From the NCBI RefSeq assembly GCF_963665995.1, contig NZ_OY762512.1, positions 2,170,001 through 2,234,000 of the forward strand: DNA of 64,000 nucleotides, read 5' to 3'. A program made the position numbers and the translations under genes. A model generated the notes under the pieces. The model saw only the letters and a list, made by a program, of their open reading frames with translations, was not told the DNA's origin and did no database searches. Source of the DNA: Pleurocapsa sp. FMAR1 (lineage in GTDB: Bacteria > Cyanobacteriota > Cyanobacteriia > Cyanobacteriales > Xenococcaceae). How positions within the stretch are numbered: position 1 is the first letter of the stretch; the number at the start of each line of letters is the position of its first letter. Positions 4,860 through 59,732 of this stretch are shown here, one piece after another.

Positions 4860-5794
4860 GACATTGCGCGAAAGCAGAATCAACACACTCTCGGATAGTT
4901 TCAAAATCGTAAATTCTTTGTTTCATCCAAGTTTTGAGAACCGACCACCAACGCTCTATTTTGTTTAAATCAGGGGAATACGGGGGCAAATACCAAATTT
5001 CACATCCTGCATGATGAACGATTTCAAGAATGCTTTGTCCTTTGTGAAAGGTTGCATTGTCAATCACGATAATGTCGCCAGACTTCAATTGAGGAAGCAA
5101 ACTTTTTTCTAACCAAGTCTCAAATACTTGACGATTACAACATCCCTCATATGTCAACGGTGCAAAAACTTTTCCTGATTTTAACGCTGCAATCCAACTA
5201 ACCCTGTCTACTCTTCGACCCGATTTTAATCCATAACATCTTGTTCCTTTCGGGCTATATCCGTATGGATAATCGTCTCGATTGTCGAATCCTGCTTCAT
5301 CTACATAGACGATTTTGCTTCGATCTATTTGACCGATACGTTCAAGAAATTGTTGCCTTTTTTCTTCATTTCTCTCTCGATACCCATAAGTTTGTCTTGG
5401 TCAGCGTACATGCGGGCAAGCCCTTTGTCTTGCGCCTGTCGGCGACGCGGGGTCTGACCGCTTTTTTTCTAGTTATGCCCAGCTTTCTTATCGCATCGCT
5501 GACATTTTGCTGAGTTAGATTCTTCCCCCATAATTGAGCTATTCGTTGCTGTGTTTTGTTGTTGTGTTGCAACACAAATTCTTGAAAACGCAGGAGGTTT
5601 TTAATCTTGGGCTTTTTTCCTTTTTGATGAAGAGCGATCGCTTTGAAGTCACCCTGAACTTGTTCTCTTTTGAGCCACAAGTTCAGTGTGTTACGACTGA
5701 TAGCGAACATTCGGCATACATTGACTTTCTTCTCGCCACTTTTTACTGCTTTAATTGCCTTCGCTCGCAAATCGTAACTGTAAGGGGATGCCAT
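4843..5794 (-). pseudogene. IS630 transposase, frame broken by a 67-bp palindromic insert
   Basis: From ATG 5794 the frame runs for 111 codons: a helix-turn-helix (VCRMFAISRNTLNLWLKRE) and a second DNA-binding segment up to LGITRKK. The insert at 5395-5461 then shifts the frame. After it, a single open frame from 5394 to 4843 supplies the DDE catalytic domain: IVYVDEAGFDN, IIVIDNATFHKG and PPYSPDLNKIERWW hold the three acidic residues. Removing 67 bases restores one 294-residue protein, normal for single-frame IS630 enzymes. So the only lesion seen is the repeat insert, and the element probably cannot move by itself. The distal part also has a TTG-initiated open frame from 5157. Confidence 0.85.
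5395..5461. repeat. Nested palindromic element, copy in IS630 transposase
   Basis: Outer arms GGTCAG (5399-5404) and CTGACC (5454-5459) are perfectly complementary. The inside holds the family core (TTGCGCCTGTCGGCGACG followed by CGGGGT) and a smaller hairpin GGGCAAGCCC. On the minus strand the insert is flanked by AAAGC on one side and AAGA on the other, as in the toxin copy at 37.1 kb. It is 67 bases long, so it shifts the reading frame of the transposase. Confidence 0.8.
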
Positions 5795-11413: not shown

Positions 11414-14400
11414 ATGCAATTAGAACCCATTGCAATTATTGGTATTGGCTGCCGTTTTCCTGGCGCAAAAAATCCTCAAGCCTTTTGGCAAATGATGCGG
11501 GATGGAGTAGATGGGGTATCTGAAGTTCCTGAATCTAGATGGGATGTAGAGTCTTACTACGACCCAGATAAAAGTAAAGCAGGTAAAACGAATACTCGTT
11601 GGGGTGGTTTTCTTGAAGATGTTGACCAATTTGAGCCACAATTTTTTGGTATTGCCCCTAAAGAAGCAGTAACAATGGATCCGCAACAACGTCTATTGTT
11701 AGAAGTCGCTTGGGAAACTTTTGAAGATGCTGGTCAAATTCCCGAAGATCTTAAGGGCAGTAAAACGGGAGTGTTTATCGGCATCGGCACTCACGACTAT
11801 TCGATTATGATGTGGCAACAGCCTGTGAGTGAACCTTACGCTACTACAGGCACAGGTAACTGTATTGCTGCCAATCGTATTTCCTATATTTTTGATTTAA
11901 AAGGACCTAGCTTGGCGGTAGACACTGCTTGCTCTTCTTCTTTGGTTTCTGTCCATTTAGCCTGTCAGAGTATTTGGACAGGTGAATCTGAACTAGCTTT
12001 AGCTGGTGGGGTTAATATGCTGCTGCTACCAACGATTATGGTGGGCTTTAGCAAAGGAGGCTTTATGTCCAGTGATGGACGCTGTAAGAGTTTTGATGCT
12101 AGTGCCGATGGTTATGTTAGGGGAGAAGGGGCAGGTTTGGTCTTGTTAAAACCTTTGTCTCAAGCTCAAGCAGATGGTGACGATATCTATGGGGTAATTC
12201 TTAGTAGCGCGGTAAACCAGGATGGCTTAAGTAACGGCATGGCTGCACCAAATCCTGTGGCGCAAGAGGCAGTTTTACGAGAGGCTTATCAGCGTGTAGG
12301 CATCGACCCTAGTTTAGTAGATTACATTGAAGCTCATGGTACAGGGACAAAAGTAGGAGATCCCATTGAAGCTAATGCTTTGGGGGCAGTTTTTGGCGAA
12401 CATCGTCAACCAGGAAATAACTGTCTGATAGGTTCAGTCAAAACCAATATCGGACATACTGAAACCGCAGCAGGTATTGCAGGAATTATCAAAGTTGCGC
12501 TGGCACTTAAGCATAAACAGATCCCACCCAGCTTACATTTTAATACTCCAAATAGTGCGATCGCTTTTGAAAATTTGAAATTACAGGTAGTTACTCAGCT
12601 AACCCCCTGGGAAAAAAATAAGCCATTAATTGCAGGAGTGAATTCTTTTGGCTTTGGTGGCACAAATGCTCATATTGTTATGGGGGACTATGAGACAAGG
12701 GGACTGGGAAAGGCGATTGGGGGACAAGGCGACTGGGGGACAAGACGACAAGGAGACGAGGAAATAGAGTTATCTTCTTTGAATTTGCTGACTATTTCGG
12801 CTAAGAGTAAATCTGCATTACGGCAGTTGGCACAAAGTTATCAAGATTTTATTCAAGAGACAGAGGTATCTTTAGAGAATATTTGTACAGCAACTCAAAC
12901 CCAAAGAAGCCATTTTAATCATCGTCTTACCTGCATTGCTAAATCAACTCAACAGTTAATCAAACAATTAACAGCTTTTACCTCTAATCGAGAAACAGCA
13001 GGATTGAAAGAAAGTACCGTTAGTAAGGAAGAACAAACATTCGCCCCTACTAAGAAAATCTGTTGGCTATTTACAGGACAAGGATCGCAATATGTAGGCA
13101 TGGGTCAACAACTTTATGACACTCAGTCTATTTTTCGCGAGGCACTAAATAACTGTGCAGAAATCCTTAAACTTTATTTAGACAAACCTTTATTAGAGAT
13201 CATTTACGAATCACAAACCTGTAAGGGCGTTTTGCCAAACGTCCCTACAAAAATTAACCGAACAATTTATACTCAACCCGCTATCTTTTCTGTAGAATAT
13301 GCCTTGGCGCAATTATGGCTTTCTTGGGGTATCAAGCCTGATTATGTCGCAGGGCATAGTATCGGAGAATATGTTGCAGCCTGTGTCGCAGGGGTTTTTA
13401 GTTTGGAAGATGGTCTAAAGCTGGTTGCCACTAGAAGTAGATTGATGGAGGAATTACCTTCATCAGGAGGAATGCTAGCTGTCTTTAGTAATCAAGAAAC
13501 AATAGCTGAATTGATAGCTACTTATGACGAGGTAAATATTGCTGCGATTAACAATAATCAAAATACCGTTATTGCTGGGAAAAACAAAACTCTAACTTTA
13601 ATTGCAGATAAATTAGCTCAAATAAATATCAGCAGCACTCTTTTAAATGTCTCCCATGCCTTTCATTCTCCTTTAATGAAGCCGATGCTGGCTGACTTTA
13701 AGCTGGTAGCAGCAGAAATAACCTACTCTGCGCCAAAAATTCCCTTGGTTTCTAACGCAACTGCACAGTTGGCGGAGATAGAGATTACTAGCCCTGATTA
13801 TTGGGTTAATCATATTATCCAACCAGTTAATTTTGCTGATAGTTTTCAGTTTCTACTACAGCAAGACGTTGATATCTTTTTAGAAATTGGGGCAAAACCA
13901 ATTCTGGCTAGCCTCGGTAAAACAATCTCAACCACAGAAATAGATTCCGATCCTATCTTGCTTCCTAGTCTTTCTGACAAACAAGACGATTGGCAGGTGA
14001 TTCTAAATAGTGTGGCACAGCTATATCACCAAGGAATAAAAATTGATTGGCGGGTATTTAATCAAAGCCATTATAATCGAGGAGTCAAACTGCCTACTTA
14101 TCCTTTTCAACGTCAAAGATACTGGTGGAAGAAAGCAAAGTTTTGGATAGAAGAAAATTCAAATAATCAGCAGCAACCACATCCTTTATTAGGTAATTGC
14201 CTAACTTTGGCTGGCACTTCAGAGAGATACTTTAAGGGACAGATAAATGCTCATAACCCTAAATATTTACAAGATCACTGTTTAGAAAATAAAACAGTAT
14301 TTCCTGCTACGGCTTATATGGAAATGGCATTAGCAGCAGGCAAGTATATATATTCAGATAGAAGCTTTCAGCTAGAGAAGTTTACTATTAAAAAGCCTTT

Positions 14401-17400
14401 GTTATTGACTAATAAACCAACGGAGTTACAAACAGTTGTTAGTAGCTCAGAAAATTGCTGTAATCTTAAGATATTTAGCAAGAATATTCAAGAAAAAGAT
14501 TTTATTTTGCATAGTGAATCTATTATTAAACCTGCGCTCAAAAATACTTTATCTCGGATAAATATAGAAGAAGTTAAATCGCGATCGCAACCTATCTTAG
14601 ACATATCAAACTACTATCAACAATTAAGCAATAAAGGTTTGAACTATGGCGTTAACTTTCAAGGTATAAAACAGTTGTGGAAAGGAAATGATCGGGCTTT
14701 TGCCTATATTGAAATACCAGATAATATAATCGATGATAACTATCAGCTTCATCCTGCTTTATTAGATTCCTGTCTACAAATTATTGGAGCAGCTACAGAG
14801 TCTCAGGGAATTTATTTACCAGTGAGTCTTGAATTATTCAAGGTATACCAAAGCTGTAGTAACAAAGTTTGGGTGCAGGTTAATATTAAGCCGACTGATA
14901 ATAGTCAAATACTAAAAGCGGATTTATTTTTAGCAGATAATACTGGTGATTTAGTTGCCCAGATAACGGACTTGTCATTACAATATCTTAGTTTGCGATC
15001 GCTACAAAAACTAATAGATATACCTGTAGAAGAGCAAGTCAATATTGATGACTGGCTATATAAAATTGACTGGGAAGCTAAAGATTTAAATACCGAATAT
15101 ATTAGTAAAATAGATAATGGCGATCGCTGGTTGATTTTTGCCGATAAAACTGATTTATCTCTGGAATTAACCGATAAATTATCAGGTATTTTGTTAGCAA
15201 AAGATGCTCATTTTAAACGGATAAAAAATAATCAATATACAATTAATCCTAATCAGCCAGAAGATTTTAAGAAACTCTGGCAAGTTATTAAACGTAAAAA
15301 AATTACTAATTTAAAAATCGCCTACTTTAGTAAGGGCAGTTCGCAAATCCATACATATGACCGAGATTGCCAAGGCATTTTTCATTTGATGCAGTCCTTA
15401 GTAAAAGAAAAATTAAACCCCTCTCAACTAGCAATAATTACTGAAAAAACCCAGTTTCAATCAGGTGATAAATCACGCCCGCGTGAATATGCTGCTTACA
15501 CCCTCGACAGTTCCTTCAACGCGACGGGGCTTATAAACTGCCGACGCAGGTTCGGCAGACAGCCCCTTGGAAACCCGCGCAACGGACTGTCTCGCAAAGC
15601 AGCATCGAGAAGCGTTCCCTTGCGCCTGTCGGCGACGCGGGGTCTTCTCTCATTTCCGCCCACCAATAGCTTATCAGGTTCGGTTTGGGGATTAGGTAGA
15701 ACAATTAAACAGGAATATCCCAGCCTTAACTGTAATTTAATTGATTTTGATAATCTAAATCTAGAACAATTATTACCAGAATTATTATTATCAGATAGCG
15801 AGACTCAGGTTGCCTATTACAACCAGCAAAGATACGTTGCCAGACTTGCGCCTCAAGACAATACTTTAAATAATCCTTTTCGTCTGCAACTATCTGACTA
15901 TGGTACTTTAGATAACCTTGCTCTTGCACCCTTGCAGCGTCGCCCTCCCCAACCAGGTGAAATTGAGATTCAAGTAACCGCTAGCGGGGTAAACTTTCGT
16001 GATGTCTTAAATGCCTTGGGGATGTTAAAAGAATACCTGCAAGCAATGGGATTTGCTAACTCTACCCAAGTACCTTTTGGTGGCGAATGTGCAGGGATTG
16101 TAACCGCTATCGGCGAAGGAGTTACAAATTTTCAGCTAGGAGATGAGGTAATTGCTGCCCAAGCGGTAGGCAGTTTGAGTAGTCATGTAACGGTTGATGC
16201 TAGATTTGCGATCGCCAAACCAGATCATTTAGACTATGCTGAGGCTGCTACTATACCCACAAACTTTTTAACCGCATATTACGGCTTGCATTATCTGGCA
16301 AAAATTAAGCCTGGAGACAAGATCCTGATTCATGCTGCTGCGGGTGGAGTAGGGCAAGCTGCGGTACAAATAGCGCAACAAATAGGTGCAGAAGTATACG
16401 CTACTGCTTCAGTGGCTAAATGGGATTTTCTTAAGGCATCAGGAGTTAAATATGTTATGAACTCCCGCACTCTCGATTTTGCTGAGGAAGTAATGCAGCT
16501 TACGGATGGCAAGGGAGTAGATTTAATACTCAATAGTCTTAATGGTGATTTTATTTCTAAGAATCTGGATATTCTCACATCAAAAGGTAGATTTGTAGAA
16601 ATTGGCAAGGTGGGAATATGGGATAAAGCACAGGTAACAGAAAAACGTGCCGATATTAGTTATTTTCCTTTCGATCTACTAGAAGTTTCTGATCGAGATC
16701 CTGAATTAATTGCTACCTTGTTTGCAGAATTGAAACAGCAATTTGTTGAGCGAATATTACAGCCTTTACCCCACAAAATTTTTCCCATACAACAAGCCGA
16801 TGATGCCTTTCGTTACATGGCGCAAGCTAAACATATCGGCAAGGTTGTCATATCCATGCCTGCTAGTAATCAAATAGTAAAACCAGACGGTAGCTATTTA
16901 ATCACGGGGGGTTTTGGTGCATTGGGCTTACAGGTAGCAAACTGGTTAGCGCAAGAAGGGGCAAAGAATTTAATTCTTGTCGGCAGAAGCCAGCCTACAA
17001 AACAGGCTCAACAAGAAATAGATAAGCTAGAACAACAAGGCGTTACCGTAAATGTCATCCAAGCTGATATTACTGATTATGATGCAGTTGCAGATATTTT
17101 TAGTAACGAAAAACCAGAGATTAAAGGGATCATTCATGCAGCAGGAAGTCTCGACGACGGGCTATTAAAAACATTATCCTGGGAGCGTTTTCAAGCAGTT
17201 TTACAGCCAAAAATTACAGGTGCGTGGAATCTACATCTTGCTACCAAAGAACAGTCGCTAGATTGGTTTGTGTGCTTCTCTTCTATTGTTTCGGTGTTTG
17301 GTGCAGCAGGGCAAAGTAACTATGCAGCAGCCAACGCCTTTATGGACAATCTGATGAGCTATCGCCGTAACCTAGGCTTGCCAGGATTAAGCATCAACTG

Positions 17401-19237
17401 GAGTATTTGGGATGAAGTTGGCATGGCAACCGGCTTAACATCTAGACAACAAGAGAAGTTGAGCCAACAAGGATTAAATGCGATCGCACCACAGCAAGGA
17501 CTAAAAGTATTAAAACAATTATTACAGCAACAGGCAACTCAAACAATTGTTTTCCCCGTAGATTGGGATACTTTTTTACGTCAACAGCCAAACAATCCTT
17601 TTTTTGAGAGATTACAACCGCAAACAGAAACTAAACCAGTCTTAACTTCTTCCTTCTTGCAGCAATTAGCCAGCGTACCAAAAGATAAACAACATCATAT
17701 GTTACGGTTACACATCCAAGAGCAAATAGCTAAAGTATTGGGCTTTAGCGATCCTGAAGATATTGATACTCAAGAAAAATTTGCCGATCTTGGTATGGAT
17801 TCGTTGATGGCGGTAGAGTTTAAAAATAGTTTACAAGCCAGTCTTGGTGATGCCGTATCTTTAACCGCAGCCTTCGATTATCCCAACGTCGAACTATTAA
17901 CGAACTATATCGCCCAAAAATTGTCTGTTGGTAATATTTTGCAAAATGTAAATGTAGAGGCGAACGACCGTTCGCCCCTACGGGAAATACCAAACAAAAC
18001 AGCGATATCACCAGTAAAACGAATCCAGATTGATATTAAGCCTGAATACAGTCAATTTAAATCAACTCCAGAATACATTAATCTCAAAAAAGATTTAGAA
18101 CGAGTAGAAAAACTGGGTAATCCTTTCTTTAATCTTCATCAAGGTATTGCCCAAGACACGATCAAAACAGATGGACGTGAGTTAATTAATTACTCTAGCT
18201 ACAACTATATCGGTATGTCTGGAGATCCTGTGGTGATTGAAGCTACTCAAAAAGCGATCGCCGAATACGGAACTTCTGTATCTGCCAGTCGGGTATTATC
18301 AGGTGAGCGTCCCTTACATTTAGAATTAGAGCGAGAAATAGCTGATTTTATTGGCACAGAAAATGCGATCGTTTATGTTGGTGGTCATGCAACCAACGTG
18401 AGTACCATTGGTCATTTGTTTAATGAGAAGGATCTAATTATCTGTGATGCCCTAAGTCACAATAGCATTAGGGAAGGCTGCAACCTATCAGGGGCGACAA
18501 TTATTGATTTTCCTCACAACGATTGTCAGGCTTTAGAGGCAATTTTAGAACGAGAAAGAACTAAATATCAAAAAGTCTTAATTGCTGTTGAGGGTATTTA
18601 TAGTACCGATGGCGATTTAGCACCCGTAGCCGAAATAGTAGAACTTAAGCACCACTATCAAACTTTTTTATTAGTAGATGAAGCTCATTCCATTGGCGTA
18701 TTGGGCTTATCTGGCGGAGGAATCAGAGAACACTTTAACTTGCAACCTACTGACGTAGACTTATGGATGGGTACTCTGAGTAAATCCTTGGCTAGCTGCG
18801 GAGGCTATATTGCTGGTTGTCATGAATTAATTCAATATCTCAAATATACTGCTCCTGGCTTTGTTTTTAGCGTCGGGATGTCCCCCGCCAATACCGCAGC
18901 AGCTTTAGCAGCTATAAGATTACTTAAATCTGAACCAGAAAGAGCAATGAAGTTACAGAGTCGAGCTAAATTTTGTCTCGATCTGGCTAAAAGTAAAGGT
19001 TTTAATACTGGCTATAGTGCCGATTCGCCTATAATTCCTGTCATTGTCGGCGAACCTCATAAGGCAGTAAGTTTATCTCAGCTTTTAGGACAAAAAGGAA
19101 TTAATGTTCAGCCGATGGTATATCCTTCTGTACCCTATAATGCTGCCCGATTACGCTTCTTTATTACCAGTCTGCATTCTGAAACACAAATTCTGGCGAC
19201 GATGAATACTCTAGAAAAAGTAATGTATGCTAAATAA
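11414..19237 (+). CDS. Iterative type I polyketide synthase fused to an alpha-oxoamine synthase (KS-AT-DH-ER-KR-ACP-AOS)
   Basis: 2607 residues in one frame. Domains: KS 1-430 (Cys173 in DTACSSS, His in EAHGTGT and NIGHTE); AT about 550-850 (Ser649 in GHSIGEY; HAFHS suggests malonyl-CoA); DH about 920-1170 (His in LQDHCLENKTVFP, Asp in HPALLDSC); a linker/pseudo-reductase region; ER 1510-1815; KR 1825-2050 (GGFGALG, LDD signature of B-type, SNYAAANAF); ACP with Ser2130 in LGMDSL; and from about 2212 a PLP enzyme of the KBL/SPT/AONS class with DEAHSIG and Lys2457 in TLSKSLA. The highly reducing set implies a saturated acyl chain built iteratively on the ACP. The AOS would then condense it with an amino acid, releasing CO2 and a 2-amino-ketone, as serine palmitoyltransferase does in sphingoid-base synthesis. 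Four small repeats lie in frame in linkers. No loading module, thioesterase or PPTase is present nearby. Confidence 0.92.
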   Translation: MQLEPIAIIGIGCRFPGAKNPQAFWQMMRDGVDGVSEVPESRWDVESYYDPDKSKAGKTNTRWGGFLEDVDQFEPQFFGIAPKEAVTMDPQQRLLLEVAWETFEDAGQIPEDLKGSKTGVFIGIGTHDYSIMMWQQPVSEPYATTGTGNCIAANRISYIFDLKGPSLAVDTACSSSLVSVHLACQSIWTGESELALAGGVNMLLLPTIMVGFSKGGFMSSDGRCKSFDASADGYVRGEGAGLVLLKPLSQAQADGDDIYGVILSSAVNQDGLSNGMAAPNPVAQEAVLREAYQRVGIDPSLVDYIEAHGTGTKVGDPIEANALGAVFGEHRQPGNNCLIGSVKTNIGHTETAAGIAGIIKVALALKHKQIPPSLHFNTPNSAIAFENLKLQVVTQLTPWEKNKPLIAGVNSFGFGGTNAHIVMGDYETRGLGKAIGGQGDWGTRRQGDEEIELSSLNLLTISAKSKSALRQLAQSYQDFIQETEVSLENICTATQTQRSHFNHRLTCIAKSTQQLIKQLTAFTSNRETAGLKESTVSKEEQTFAPTKKICWLFTGQGSQYVGMGQQLYDTQSIFREALNNCAEILKLYLDKPLLEIIYESQTCKGVLPNVPTKINRTIYTQPAIFSVEYALAQLWLSWGIKPDYVAGHSIGEYVAACVAGVFSLEDGLKLVATRSRLMEELPSSGGMLAVFSNQETIAELIATYDEVNIAAINNNQNTVIAGKNKTLTLIADKLAQINISSTLLNVSHAFHSPLMKPMLADFKLVAAEITYSAPKIPLVSNATAQLAEIEITSPDYWVNHIIQPVNFADSFQFLLQQDVDIFLEIGAKPILASLGKTISTTEIDSDPILLPSLSDKQDDWQVILNSVAQLYHQGIKIDWRVFNQSHYNRGVKLPTYPFQRQRYWWKKAKFWIEENSNNQQQPHPLLGNCLTLAGTSERYFKGQINAHNPKYLQDHCLENKTVFPATAYMEMALAAGKYIYSDRSFQLEKFTIKKPLLLTNKPTELQTVVSSSENCCNLKIFSKNIQEKDFILHSESIIKPALKNTLSRINIEEVKSRSQPILDISNYYQQLSNKGLNYGVNFQGIKQLWKGNDRAFAYIEIPDNIIDDNYQLHPALLDSCLQIIGAATESQGIYLPVSLELFKVYQSCSNKVWVQVNIKPTDNSQILKADLFLADNTGDLVAQITDLSLQYLSLRSLQKLIDIPVEEQVNIDDWLYKIDWEAKDLNTEYISKIDNGDRWLIFADKTDLSLELTDKLSGILLAKDAHFKRIKNNQYTINPNQPEDFKKLWQVIKRKKITNLKIAYFSKGSSQIHTYDRDCQGIFHLMQSLVKEKLNPSQLAIITEKTQFQSGDKSRPREYAAYTLDSSFNATGLINCRRRFGRQPLGNPRNGLSRKAASRSVPLRLSATRGLLSFPPTNSLSGSVWGLGRTIKQEYPSLNCNLIDFDNLNLEQLLPELLLSDSETQVAYYNQQRYVARLAPQDNTLNNPFRLQLSDYGTLDNLALAPLQRRPPQPGEIEIQVTASGVNFRDVLNALGMLKEYLQAMGFANSTQVPFGGECAGIVTAIGEGVTNFQLGDEVIAAQAVGSLSSHVTVDARFAIAKPDHLDYAEAATIPTNFLTAYYGLHYLAKIKPGDKILIHAAAGGVGQAAVQIAQQIGAEVYATASVAKWDFLKASGVKYVMNSRTLDFAEEVMQLTDGKGVDLILNSLNGDFISKNLDILTSKGRFVEIGKVGIWDKAQVTEKRADISYFPFDLLEVSDRDPELIATLFAELKQQFVERILQPLPHKIFPIQQADDAFRYMAQAKHIGKVVISMPASNQIVKPDGSYLITGGFGALGLQVANWLAQEGAKNLILVGRSQPTKQAQQEIDKLEQQGVTVNVIQADITDYDAVADIFSNEKPEIKGIIHAAGSLDDGLLKTLSWERFQAVLQPKITGAWNLHLATKEQSLDWFVCFSSIVSVFGAAGQSNYAAANAFMDNLMSYRRNLGLPGLSINWSIWDEVGMATGLTSRQQEKLSQQGLNAIAPQQGLKVLKQLLQQQATQTIVFPVDWDTFLRQQPNNPFFERLQPQTETKPVLTSSFLQQLASVPKDKQHHMLRLHIQEQIAKVLGFSDPEDIDTQEKFADLGMDSLMAVEFKNSLQASLGDAVSLTAAFDYPNVELLTNYIAQKLSVGNILQNVNVEANDRSPLREIPNKTAISPVKRIQIDIKPEYSQFKSTPEYINLKKDLERVEKLGNPFFNLHQGIAQDTIKTDGRELINYSSYNYIGMSGDPVVIEATQKAIAEYGTSVSASRVLSGERPLHLELEREIADFIGTENAIVYVGGHATNVSTIGHLFNEKDLIICDALSHNSIREGCNLSGATIIDFPHNDCQALEAILERERTKYQKVLIAVEGIYSTDGDLAPVAEIVELKHHYQTFLLVDEAHSIGVLGLSGGGIREHFNLQPTDVDLWMGTLSKSLASCGGYIAGCHELIQYLKYTAPGFVFSVGMSPANTAAALAAIRLLKSEPERAMKLQSRAKFCLDLAKSKGFNTGYSADSPIIPVIVGEPHKAVSLSQLLGQKGINVQPMVYPSVPYNAARLRFFITSLHSETQILATMNTLEKVMYAK
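12691..12765. repeat. Degenerate GGGGACAAGGCGACTG repeats inside the KS-AT linker
   Basis: A G-rich, purine-biased run of two to three imperfect units (GACAAGGGGACTGGG, GGGACAAGGCGACTG, GGGACAAGACGAC) codes for a stretch like RGLGKAIGGQGDWGTRRQGD directly after the KS domain end (NAHIVMGDYE). Base composition and residue content differ sharply from the surrounding synthase. It stays in frame and sits in the linker before the AT domain, so it should be tolerated. Confidence 0.6.
13221..13248. repeat. 28-bp palindrome (GTA-GGGCGTTT type) inside the AT region of the synthase
   Basis: GTAAGGGCGTTT, a TGCC loop, then AAACGTCCCTAC: 12-base arms with two G-T-compatible mismatches. It encodes CKGVLPNVPTK between the first AT helix region and TIYTQPAIF. 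It looks like the GTAGGGGCG...CGCCCCTAC class of dispersed cyanobacterial palindromes, here retained in frame. Confidence 0.65.
15502..15649. repeat. Composite nested palindrome in frame inside the synthase (modules A and B)
   Basis: Module A spans 15502-15595. It is the same 49-bp palindrome as at 9509-9557, with a nested hairpin of about 45 bases in its centre (GGGGCT ... CTGCCGA ... TCGGCAG ... AGCCCC). Module B, at 15607-15649, has arms GAGAAG/CTTCTC around CGTTCCCTTGCGCC, TGTC and GGCGACGCGGGGT. The whole low-similarity insert covers about residues 1355-1416 (rich in Arg, Ser, Ala) between recognisable synthase sequence and SVWGLGRTI. It keeps the frame open. Confidence 0.8.
17954..17981. 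repeat. 28-bp near-perfect palindrome in the ACP-AOS linker
   Basis: GTAGAGGCGAACGACCGTTCGCCCCTAC differs from its own reverse complement at only a few positions. It encodes VEANDRSPLR in the linker between the ACP (ending near LTNYIAQKL) and the AOS domain. This is a common dispersed palindrome class in cyanobacterial genomes and again sits in frame at a domain boundary. Confidence 0.75.
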
Positions 19238-33473: not shown

Positions 33474-34114
33474 AATTTGAAAAATGCGATCGCATTGAAA
33501 AAATCAAACAAATATGGTTGCTAGTTCCTCTTTACTGTTGAGCAATATATTTTGCGATCGCTAGTAGAAGAAAGATAAAATTTCTCCTATGAAATAAATA
33601 CCAAACAAGACTAAAAGTGAAGGCCTAAAGCTAAAAGCATCAATACTTTCAACTCTAAATCTTCACTTTAAACTACAGTGTTAGTAACTGCGTCAGGTTT
33701 TCCTTCCATGTCTGCTAATAACAGTTACTTAAAAGCTAATGGCTGATAGCTAAGAGCTAATAGCTGCGAACAGTAATATTTTGAGCAAGGAAGCCCCTAA
33801 AGGGTTCAACAGTTTGCTCGCCCTCGACAACCAAGGGGTACCCCCCGCAGGTACCTCAACGGGGGGAACCCCCGCAACGGTTTTGTCTCGCAACGGGGGA
33901 AACCCCCGCAACGCAACTGTTTCACCGCGTCGCCGTCAGAGGTCAGACCCCCTAAAGGGTTCGACAGTTTGCTTATGCCGGGGAACCCGTCCACCGCAAC
34001 TGTCTCACCGCGTCGTCCGAAGGCGCAAGGGAATGCTGACCTAGCAAGGGCAACAGATGCGGCTAAAGCCTTTCTTGCTATTGTAGCCATTACTTAAAAT
34101 CAGCAACGCCTGAA
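33474..34114. other. Repeat-filled region between a dead toxin gene and fusA
   Basis: 640 bases without a gene. The left part has HIP1 sites at 33486 and 33553 and words of the GCTAATAGCT/AGCTAAGAGC type around 33730-33765. The right part, 33788-34041, is a cluster of GC-rich nested palindromes. Open frames on both strands across the cluster reflect repeat structure only and were not called. Confidence 0.6.
33788..34041. repeat. Cluster of nested palindromic elements (two composite copies)
   Basis: Copy 2 spans 33941-34041 with outer arms GGTCAG/CTGACC, identical to the IS630 copy. It has the family core on the minus strand (CATTCCCTTGCGCC ... GACGACGCGG) but split by an A-type palindrome (TGAGACAGTTGCGG ... 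AAACTGTCGAACCC) before GGGGGT. Copy 1, at about 33788-33940, repeats the same nesting with CCCCTAAAGGG, CAACAGTTTGCTC, GGGGGAACCCCC and GGGGGAAACCCCC hairpins and GCAACTGTTTCACCGCGTCGCC. Position relative to fusA: about 75 bases after its stop. Confidence 0.75.
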
Positions 34115-36892: not shown

Positions 36893-37325
36893 TCATTGCT
36901 GTTCAAACTCTGTTAATATTTGTTTAATTTCTTTGGTAGATATATCTTCTCGCTCTGATTTTGAATAGATAGTAATCAAAATTATATTGGTAGTTGTCTT
37001 AATATAGTAAATAACTCTATAGCCACCACTTTTACCTTATCTTGGTGCGCGTTCCTTTGCGCCTAGATGCGGACAAGTCCTTTCTGGCGACGCAGGGTCG
37101 CACCGCTTTCTGAATATCGCTATTTTTAACTCTTAATTTTAGTATTGTGTAATCGATTTGTGCTAGACGATCGCCTAGTAATTCTCCTGCTTCTAATTGT
37201 GTAATAATTGGCTGAATATCTTTACGAATACTACGATACTTTTTTGCTAATGTACGCAAATTACGTTTAAATTTGTCAGTAAATTCAACCTGAATAATTG
37301 GTGATTCATTCTGCATCAATTCCAT
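36893..37325 (-). pseudogene. RelE/YafQ-type toxin broken by a palindromic insert
   Basis: From 37325 the frame reads VEFTDKFKRNLRTLAKKYRS, a LEAGELLGDRLAQIDYTILK segment and KLRVKNSDIQK, a RelE-superfamily toxin. At 37106 a 67-70 base palindromic element begins and the frame ends at a stop near 37032. Beyond the insert the rest of the toxin is open in another frame: GKSGGYRVIYYIKTTTNIIL and ITIYSKSEREDIS, to TGA 36893-36895. Without the insert the protein would be about 120 residues. The toxin should be dead; its antitoxin gene is intact and overlaps by 20 bases. Confidence 0.85.
37037..37106. repeat. Nested palindromic element, copy in the RelE-type toxin
   Basis: Outer arms are GGTGCG (37044-37049) and CGCACC (37099-37104). 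Core halves are CGTTCCTTTGCGCC and GGCGACGCAGGGT. The loop between them carries the sub-hairpin GGACAAGTCC. On the minus strand the flanks are AAAGC and AAGA, as in the IS630 copy; arm-to-arm length is 61 bases in both. Confidence 0.8.
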
Positions 37326-43253: not shown

Positions 43254-43357
43254 ATCATATTAGAGATAGATGGAATGAAATAGACAGTATCGCTTTTTAA
43301 AGCTGCCAGATATCGCAGTACGTTAATCGGTTAGGACAAAAATTTAATTGCTCGTAA

Positions 43358-59100: not shown

Positions 59101-59732
59101 TTAGCTTTCAAGAGGTCTATTAAACACAATCCATTCCCCCAAGACTTGGGCGATCGCTCCTCCCGGTAAACTAGAGGTACAGCTTTTATTAGGTGCGGAT
59201 ATTAGCTGCACTACTGCTTCTATTTGGGCAAAATTTGGCTGTTTGGAGATTATATAGCCGCACCAAGTTAAATTAGCGGTGCGACCCCCTAAAGGGTGAA
59301 ACAGTTTGCTCAACGGGTCACAGACCTGCAACGCAACTGTTTCACCGCGTCGCCGACAGAGCGGGTGGAAACGGCTCCGTCCAGGAGCCTGTCTTGAGAC
59401 AGTTGTTCATGGGGGAAACCCCCAAGACCACACTGTCTCGCTGTTCCACACCCGAAGTTCAAGGGAACGCTCGAATCAGAGTAACGAGTAACGAGTTTTA
59501 AGAAATGTCTATCACGTTTACACGTAATGCTATAAGTTCAGAATAGGACGCGTCAAAATAATCTCTGGTGTCAAAGGACGTTGCCAGCTTAATGCACCCA
59601 AGCCATCTGCTCCAGCACCACGAATTAGGTTGTATAAAAATGTTTCGGCGCGATCGCTTTAAGTATGTCCTGTAACAACATACTTAAATCCTTTTTCTTC
59701 GGCAATTTCTACTAAAGTCTGATAACGCCACT
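59101..59732 (-). pseudogene. Truncated copy of tilS from a tandem duplication
   Basis: 59101-59256 encodes the same C-terminal residues as intact tilS (KQPNFAQIEAVVQLISAPNK, GGAIAQVLGEWIVFNRPLES). 59531-59732 matches the middle of tilS (GVKGRCQLNAPKPSAPAPRI on the reverse reading, then the KSDRAETF region, here with a TTTAAG/TTAA change creating a stop). The stretch between holds a GC-rich palindromic block in place of about 320 bases of tilS, and the N-terminal half including SGGxDS is absent. It is a non-functional duplicate. Confidence 0.85.
59278..59475. repeat. Composite palindromic block inside the tilS remnant
   Basis: It begins GGTGCGACCCCCTAAAGGG, the left end also seen in the toxin copy, and on the minus strand shows the module B core TGTCGGCGACGCGG split from GGGGGT by an A-type palindrome (TGAAACAGTTGCG ... 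CAAACTGTTTCACC), exactly the split site used in the 34.0 kb copy. A further hairpin set (GGAGCC/GGCTCC, GGGGGAAACCCCC, ACTGTCTC) follows, then AAGGGAACGCTCGAATC. The right outer arm is not a perfect partner of the left. Just outside, at 59259-59267, CCGCACCAAG looks like a stray right end of another copy. Confidence 0.7.

What the first reader, a model, noticed from the sequence alone, without database searches (positions are those of the whole stretch)
5395..5461. A palindromic element whose outer stems covary between copies
Five places share a core (on the appropriate strand CGTTCCC-like, TTGCGCC, GGCGACGCGG, GGGT) but have different outer 6-bp arms that remain complementary: GGTCAG/CTGACC (5.4 kb, 34.0 kb), GGTGCG/CGCACC (37.1 kb, left arm also at 59.3 kb), GAGAAG/CTTCTC (15.6 kb). 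The inner sub-hairpin also covaries (GGGC/GCCC against GGAC/GTCC). Compensated changes mean the fold itself, in DNA or RNA, is what is kept, as in REP-type or RNA-structure-dependent elements. Flanks AAAGC and AAGA around two independent inserts hint at a target preference. I do not recognise the family by name.
Basis: partly seen in the sequence, partly recalled or inferred. Interest (0 to 1): 0.85.

Follow-up and report, generated by a model that had tools for sequence, protein, structure and literature searches.

The report
A 51-letter self-nesting mobile DNA hairpin
A roughly 51-letter DNA hairpin has been copied to dozens of separate places in a cyanobacterial chromosome, including inside genes, and in related cyanobacteria inside its own copies, with its two arms changing together so that the hairpin is kept; it resembles known tiny mobile repeats but could not be placed in any family tested here.

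Summary
The window lies in a 5.43-Mb cyanobacterial genome. A covariance model finds 141 matches there (E<=1; at least 21 hitchhike in two insertion sequences), 2-16 in each of twelve congeners at E<=1e-6, and an exact pattern hits Okeania, Hydrocoleum, Spirulina, Xenococcus, Pleurocapsa and Crocosphaera records. The unit is a precise 51-nt insert (69 nt with a nested hairpin), T|NTCTT-GGTNNG-core-CNNACC-GCT, shown by empty sites, without target duplication, mostly after CT.

Arm covariation holds without fitting. In a gapless alignment of 85 unique copies, four of six arm pairs are among the twelve top-scoring column pairs. Of 40 paired ends in the genome, 39 have complementary free letters (random pairing 0.37), 14 of 15 even at 67-773 nt. 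Copies sit in frame in P450, CobN, a chorismate-binding enzyme and TnpB genes.

Best explanation: a non-autonomous mobile palindrome whose folded strand is the substrate of a CT/CA-cutting nuclease like those of IS200/IS605 or REP systems. The enzyme is unidentified and REP membership fails. It works like REPs, cyanobacterial SDRs and Rickettsia palindromic elements. Rated a new variant of a known kind.

The parts
5394..5462 (+). 69-nt copy (long form): arms GGTCAG 5399-5404 and CTGACC 5454-5459, inside an IS630-family transposase gene read on the minus strand; one of 17 identical copies in the genome
   Evidence: homologous empty site in congener G008 (L281)
5408..5428 (+). nested ~20-nt hairpin module (GGGC AA GCCC)
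15607..15649 (+). core with arms GAGAAG/CTTCTC, part of a larger composite inside a polyketide synthase ORF (11414-19237)
33938..34046 (-). copy with GCTA...TCT ends and arms GGTCAG 34036-34041 / CTGACC 33941-33946, holding another hairpin module
37039..37107 (+). 69-nt copy with arms GGTGCG 37044-37049 / CGCACC 37099-37104 and a nested hairpin module (GGAC AA GTCC) at about 37065-37085
59275..59475 (-). composite with a right end GGGTCGCACCGCT (59275-59287) and a left part TTCGAGCGTTCCC; its arms do not match
43311..43356 (-). empty paralogue of the insertion site of copy L089 (no element in the window here)

Best explanation
A non-autonomous mobile DNA palindrome. SHOWN: the unit is a 51-nt insert (69 nt with a nested hairpin). 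It enters without target duplication, mainly after CT in pyrimidine-rich DNA, has conserved ends (NTCTT- and -GCT) and a conserved core, and has outer arms that differ between copies but stay complementary. It inserts at TTCCCT^ of its own copies and into genes in frame. INFERRED: the folded single strand is recognised and moved in trans by a cut-and-rejoin enzyme acting at CT/CA, of the HUH/Y1 type of IS200/IS605 or TnpA-REP. Only well-paired copies are good substrates, which keeps the arms complementary while their letters drift. Some copies then spread by riding inside insertion sequences. The enzyme is not identified.
For: Exact empty sites: two in a P450 gene against G004/G005, one in a TnpB gene against G010/G006/G001, one against a paralogue in the window, one in IS630 against G008. 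Flank profile of 82 flank-distinct copies out of 110: T at -1 in 83%, C at -2 in 62%. Free arm letters complementary in 50 of 54 matches in named genomes. Top covarying columns in 85 gapless unique 51-mers are 10-44 and 9-45, with 8-46 fifth and 7-47 twelfth. 39 of 40 paired ends complementary, 14 of 15 at 67-773 nt. Self-insertion at TTCCCT^ at 14 places. TnpA-REP enzymes cut at CT, one also at CA (PMC8266576, passages).
Against: No enzyme is linked: of 7 Y1 genes in G000, two have a copy within 1.5 kb, one of these inside the neighbouring tnpB, and five have none in the stretch scanned. Y1 genes are also present in genomes without a match (G016, G041), and one G000 Y1 gene seems to have its own different palindromes (by eye). 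The unpaired TCTT does not fit the published guide rule for CT. No orientation bias along the chromosome (111 of 141 matches used; 84 of 300 permutations as extreme). The drawn inner stem hardly varies in the standard sense, and its one variable pair, 24-31, ranks third mostly through non-standard letters. A recurrent subfamily (CTCGCG...CGCTCG) has mismatched arms yet lies in different flanks.
Confidence: 0.55

Rival explanations
1. Mobility through an RNA intermediate: a hairpin RNA is reverse-transcribed and inserted. Recalled as the proposal made for the Nostoc SDR elements.
For: Structure kept and no target duplication; the idea exists for similar cyanobacterial repeats (recalled, paper not held).
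Against: No G.T pair among the 255 cells of the three variable arm pairs 8-46, 9-45 and 10-44, although G.U would be tolerated in RNA (few events). Copies lie in genes in both orientations. No Rfam match in the window.
Confidence: 0.15
2. The arms match because of replication template switching that perfects palindromes, not because the fold is needed; the core moves by some other route.
For: Arm changes are nearly always complete on both sides, without wobble intermediates.
Against: Arms 67-773 nt apart with nested modules between them still match in 14 of 15 cases, a long reach for template switching; ends and core are conserved too.
Confidence: 0.2
3. Ordinary hitchhiking: the copies spread only as passengers of insertion sequences.
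For: 17 identical copies in IS630 and four in an ISL3-like gene; repeated identical scores in G173 and G200 suggest the same there.
Against: 82 flank-distinct sites among 110 end-to-end copies, exact empty sites and self-nesting.
Confidence: 0.03

Closest known systems
Small dispersed repeats (SDR) of Nostoc punctiforme (Elhai et al. 2008, doi 10.1101/gr.074336.107; not held, content recalled)
   Same: Very small, mobile, compensated structure, found in heptamer repeats and nested in copies of themselves, in cyanobacteria (recalled)
   Different: SDRs are recalled as 21-27 nt; this is 51 nt. Sequence identity could not be tested
REP elements with TnpA-REP (RAYT); GTAG repeats
   Same: Short imperfect hairpins; TnpA-REP cuts at CT, one also at CA (PMC8266576, passages); GTAG repeats exist in cyanobacteria (PMC3733652, passages)
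   Different: No GTAG tetranucleotide beside the hairpin, no REPtron arrangement, found in coding sequence, single-hairpin unit
Rickettsia palindromic elements (RPE)
   Same: Palindromes inserted in frame in unrelated genes (PMC10969869, passages)
   Different: RPEs are about 150 bp; different organisms; length here is 51
MITEs such as Nezha of cyanobacteria
   Same: Non-autonomous, inverted repeats, many copies
   Different: No target duplication, no parent transposon with the same ends found, far shorter

Membership tests
REP (TnpA-REP system) | conserved GTAG-type tetranucleotide 5' of the hairpin | tested here: not met
   5' tag is NTCTT in 82 flank-distinct copies, 3' tag GCT or GCA
REP (TnpA-REP system) | tnpA-REP gene flanked by cognate repeats | tested here: not met
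   7 Y1 genes in G000, none flanked on both sides by copies in the stretches scanned
REP (TnpA-REP system) | cutting at CT or CA dinucleotides | tested here: inconclusive
   junctions mostly CT, some CA, from sequence only
IS200/IS605-derived element | insertion without target duplication | tested here: met
IS200/IS605-derived element | two different subterminal hairpins, left and right | tested here: not met
   one hairpin spans the 51-nt unit
SDR (Nostoc) | length 21-27 nt (recalled) | tested here: not met
   51 nt in 98 of 110 end-to-end copies
SDR (Nostoc) | compensated secondary structure and self-nesting (recalled) | tested here: met
SDR (Nostoc) | sequence of a named SDR family | not testable with these tools
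   paper not held
Rickettsia palindromic element | in-frame insertion in genes | tested here: met
   20 of 94 copies with distinct 12-nt left flanks lie in an open frame of at least 150 codons, some perhaps spurious; gene families named for four ORFs holding five inserts
Rickettsia palindromic element | about 150 bp, Rickettsia families | tested here: not met
   51 nt, cyanobacteria
MITE | target site duplication | tested here: not met
MITE | parent transposon with the same ends | tested here: inconclusive
   end pairs up to 1,500 nt apart found genome-wide; the eight longer interiors printed are nested hairpin modules; longer parents were not sought genome-wide
Rfam families | match above gathering score | tested here: not met
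   0 matches in the window

The most novel reading that the evidence does not exclude
A new class of single-hairpin mobile DNA in cyanobacteria that moves as a folded strand between CT/CA dinucleotides, with one arm re-templated from the other at each cycle. This would explain the complete two-sided arm changes, and the building of Russian-doll palindromes up to about 770 nt whose outermost arms still match. It would be moved by an enzyme not yet linked to any repeat.
Probability: 0.2. Interest if true: 0.85.

Novelty: new variant of a known kind. Interest (0 to 1): 0.64.

Why it matters
It is a very small mobile unit for which exact ends, empty sites, target and structure can all be read from sequence, so the question of how such tiny repeats move becomes testable with a 51-nt substrate. 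It also adds 17-residue segments to metabolic proteins in frame, and shows arms kept complementary across long nested inserts.

Tried and rejected
RAYT as mobiliser by linkage: PF01797 searched in 8 genomes, copies sought beside the genes and a tree built. Two of 7 G000 genes have a copy within 1.5 kb, one of them inside a neighbouring tnpB; no REP-like arrangement. Autonomous element with the same ends: sought in held sequence and by pairing ends within 1,500 nt genome-wide; the eight longer interiors printed are nested hairpins. Orientation along the chromosome: no bias (origin unknown, so weak). Rfam: none in the window. Plasmids: one record, Chondrocystis sp. NIES-4102, at the coordinates of the G008 copy, so G008 is probably that strain. 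Phages: three weak partial matches in Arthrobacter phages, taken as chance. Viral contigs: 0. IS110-type CT-core recombination was considered from general knowledge and set aside, because the target needs only about two bases and the C^A cases do not fit. Literature: eight searches and no description of this element in what they listed; most subscription papers are not held. The reading of two IS1-type sites (L194, L225) as 50-nt inserts at C^A rests on a protein motif that I recalled (one search supports only an IS1/IS1595-type zinc domain for L194), and the link between C on the left and A on the right was seen by eye in few copies.

Full report
Setting. The window is G000:C1:2170001-2234000 of a 5,429,540-base single contig; the window is 38% G+C. 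The congener G008 has its copy at the same coordinates as plasmid AP018282.1 of Chondrocystis sp. NIES-4102, so the organism is probably a relative of that cyanobacterium (inference).

Copies. The 73-nt stretch at 5.4 kb has 41 matches in the genome, 17 of them identical. Their flanks are homologous and belong to an IS630-family transposase gene, so they are hitchhikers. A covariance model from 21 copies finds 141 matches at E<=1 (150 of 1,559 candidates were scored, so a lower bound). At E<=1e-6 there are 98 in G000 and 2-16 in each of twelve congeners; 14 of 20 genomes searched, G000 included, have a match. In a sample of the class 12 of 291 genomes, G000 included, have one, with stricter filters. 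An exact pattern with free arm letters hit 53 stretches of named genomes: Okeania, Hydrocoleum, Spirulina sp. CCY15215, ESFC-1, Xenococcus, Pleurocapsa, Xenococcaceae MAGs and a Crocosphaera MAG.

Anatomy. From 145 own and 97 other distinct rows, 110 run from end to end with enough flank; the other rows were dropped. Lengths are 51 (98), 69 (6), 52 (5) and 54 (1); 82 have distinct flanks. The consensus is N-TCTT-GGTNNG-CRTTCCCTTGCG-loop-CGCGGGGT-CNNACC-GCT. Empty sites fix the ends. The P450 gene at L095 has two inserts; a homologue in G004 lacks both and one in G005 lacks the one compared. The TnpB gene at L093 is empty in G010, G006 and G001. L089 has an uninterrupted paralogue in the window. 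A heptamer array and GTAGGGGCG palindromes agree. The IS630 homologue of G008 is empty too. Nothing is duplicated at the target; a T shared by both ends leaves the cut ambiguous by one base. T precedes the insert in 83% and C stands before it in 62%; the right flank is T-rich.

Covariation. Three tests do not depend on fitting to the structure. (a) In one search's matches the arm letters were free: 50 of 54 are complementary; three of the four misses are nested copies in which a truncated inner copy lies in an outer one. (b) The 51-mers align without gaps. Among 85 unique ones, the column pairs with the highest corrected covariation are 10-44 and 9-45, with 8-46 fifth and 7-47 twelfth, all of the outer stem. 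Pair 24-31 of the inner stem ranks third, but mostly through non-standard letters, so the inner stem as drawn is not supported there. The tree of the copies was not modelled. (c) Left and right ends sought separately in the genome gave 53 and 76 places. Of 40 left ends with a right end within 1,500 nt, 39 have complementary letters, against 0.37 by random pairing; 13 left ends have no partner. Of the 15 spaced 67-773 nt, 14 match. These include the four ISL3-like copies, so not all are independent. The eight longer interiors printed are chains of other hairpin modules. In a wider count 55 of 75 own-genome cores have arms of at least 6 bp, with 15 distinct arms; 20 do not, including a recurrent CTCGCG...CGCTCG subfamily. 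The count on the model alignment agrees, but used copies chosen by pattern and its inner helix never varies. The three variable arm pairs show 245 standard Watson-Crick cells, 10 mismatches and no G.T in 255. Folding of single copies is only moderately better than shuffles (z -2.3 to -1.6 for three plain copies, -2.8 for one reverse strand, -6.0 for a composite), and the 5.4-kb long form is not better at all (z 0.0).

Nesting and genes. In frame they sit in a cytochrome P450 (twice), CobN, a chorismate-binding enzyme, an IVP-type protein and TnpB of G000, and in a 149-aa ISL3-like fragment (below the curated cut-offs for the full family). Absence in a homologue was shown only for P450 and TnpB; in CobN and the chorismate-binding enzyme the element lies inside another palindrome. 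Over all copies, 20 of 94 with distinct 12-nt left flanks lie in an open frame of at least 150 codons, some perhaps spurious. A stricter own-genome count gave 5 of 33, with the chorismate-enzyme site merged away because it shares its left flank with CobN. The 15.6-kb copy is part of a composite in a polyketide synthase.

Mechanism. No target duplication, a CT or CA junction, conserved unpaired ends and a kept hairpin point to an enzyme that cuts and rejoins a folded strand. TnpA-REP proteins do this at CT, one also at CA (PMC8266576, passages). But the REP tag is absent, the guide rule does not fit, Y1 genes are not flanked by copies and one has palindromes of its own (by eye). So the type of enzyme is an inference at moderate confidence. 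An RNA route and arm-to-arm template switching remain open.

Unexplained. Three IS630 lineages whose flanks are 62-79% identical carry the same 73 nt unchanged at the same site. Three separate insertions at one site, conversion limited to the insert, or strong constraint would each be surprising.

Literature. Seen as passages only: PMC8266576, PMC3733652, PMC3116915, PMC4390886, PMC10969869. Elhai et al. 2008 was not seen; what is said of it is recalled.

Noticed in passing
5394-5462; L001, L003, L013: Three IS630 lineages with 62-79% identical flanks carry an identical 73-nt stretch at the same site, within an A-run between two transposase frames.
   Followed up: partly
IS630 copies, e.g. L280, L287, L290: 13 of the 22 own-genome matches to the IS630 fragment carry a TAG stop in the second transposase frame, 11 of them full-length at 98-99% identity, as if moved in trans.
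   Followed up: no
L249 (G000:C1:2336473-2336817): A solitary Y1 transposase gene with palindromes of its own (CATGAAATTAATTTCATGG, AGTCGGTTTAAACCGACT) on both sides, possibly a REP system of this genome.
   Followed up: no
9.5, 15.5, 33.8-34.1, 59.3-59.5 kb: G+C-rich islands made of a second hairpin module (CAGT..CGTTG...CTG) with varying arms such as GACAGT/ACTGTC and GCAGT/ACTGC.
   Followed up: partly
31.33-31.37 kb: A near-perfect palindrome GAGACCCCGCG...CGCGGGGTCTC built from the right half of the element core facing itself.
   Followed up: no
TGCGGNNAANNCCTT places in G000: Several of these hairpin modules come in pairs 1,182 nt apart, as if carried twice by another repeated element.
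   Followed up: no
L095, L202: The P450 genes of G000 and of the congener G003 carry an element at the same codon but with different inner loops.
   Followed up: no
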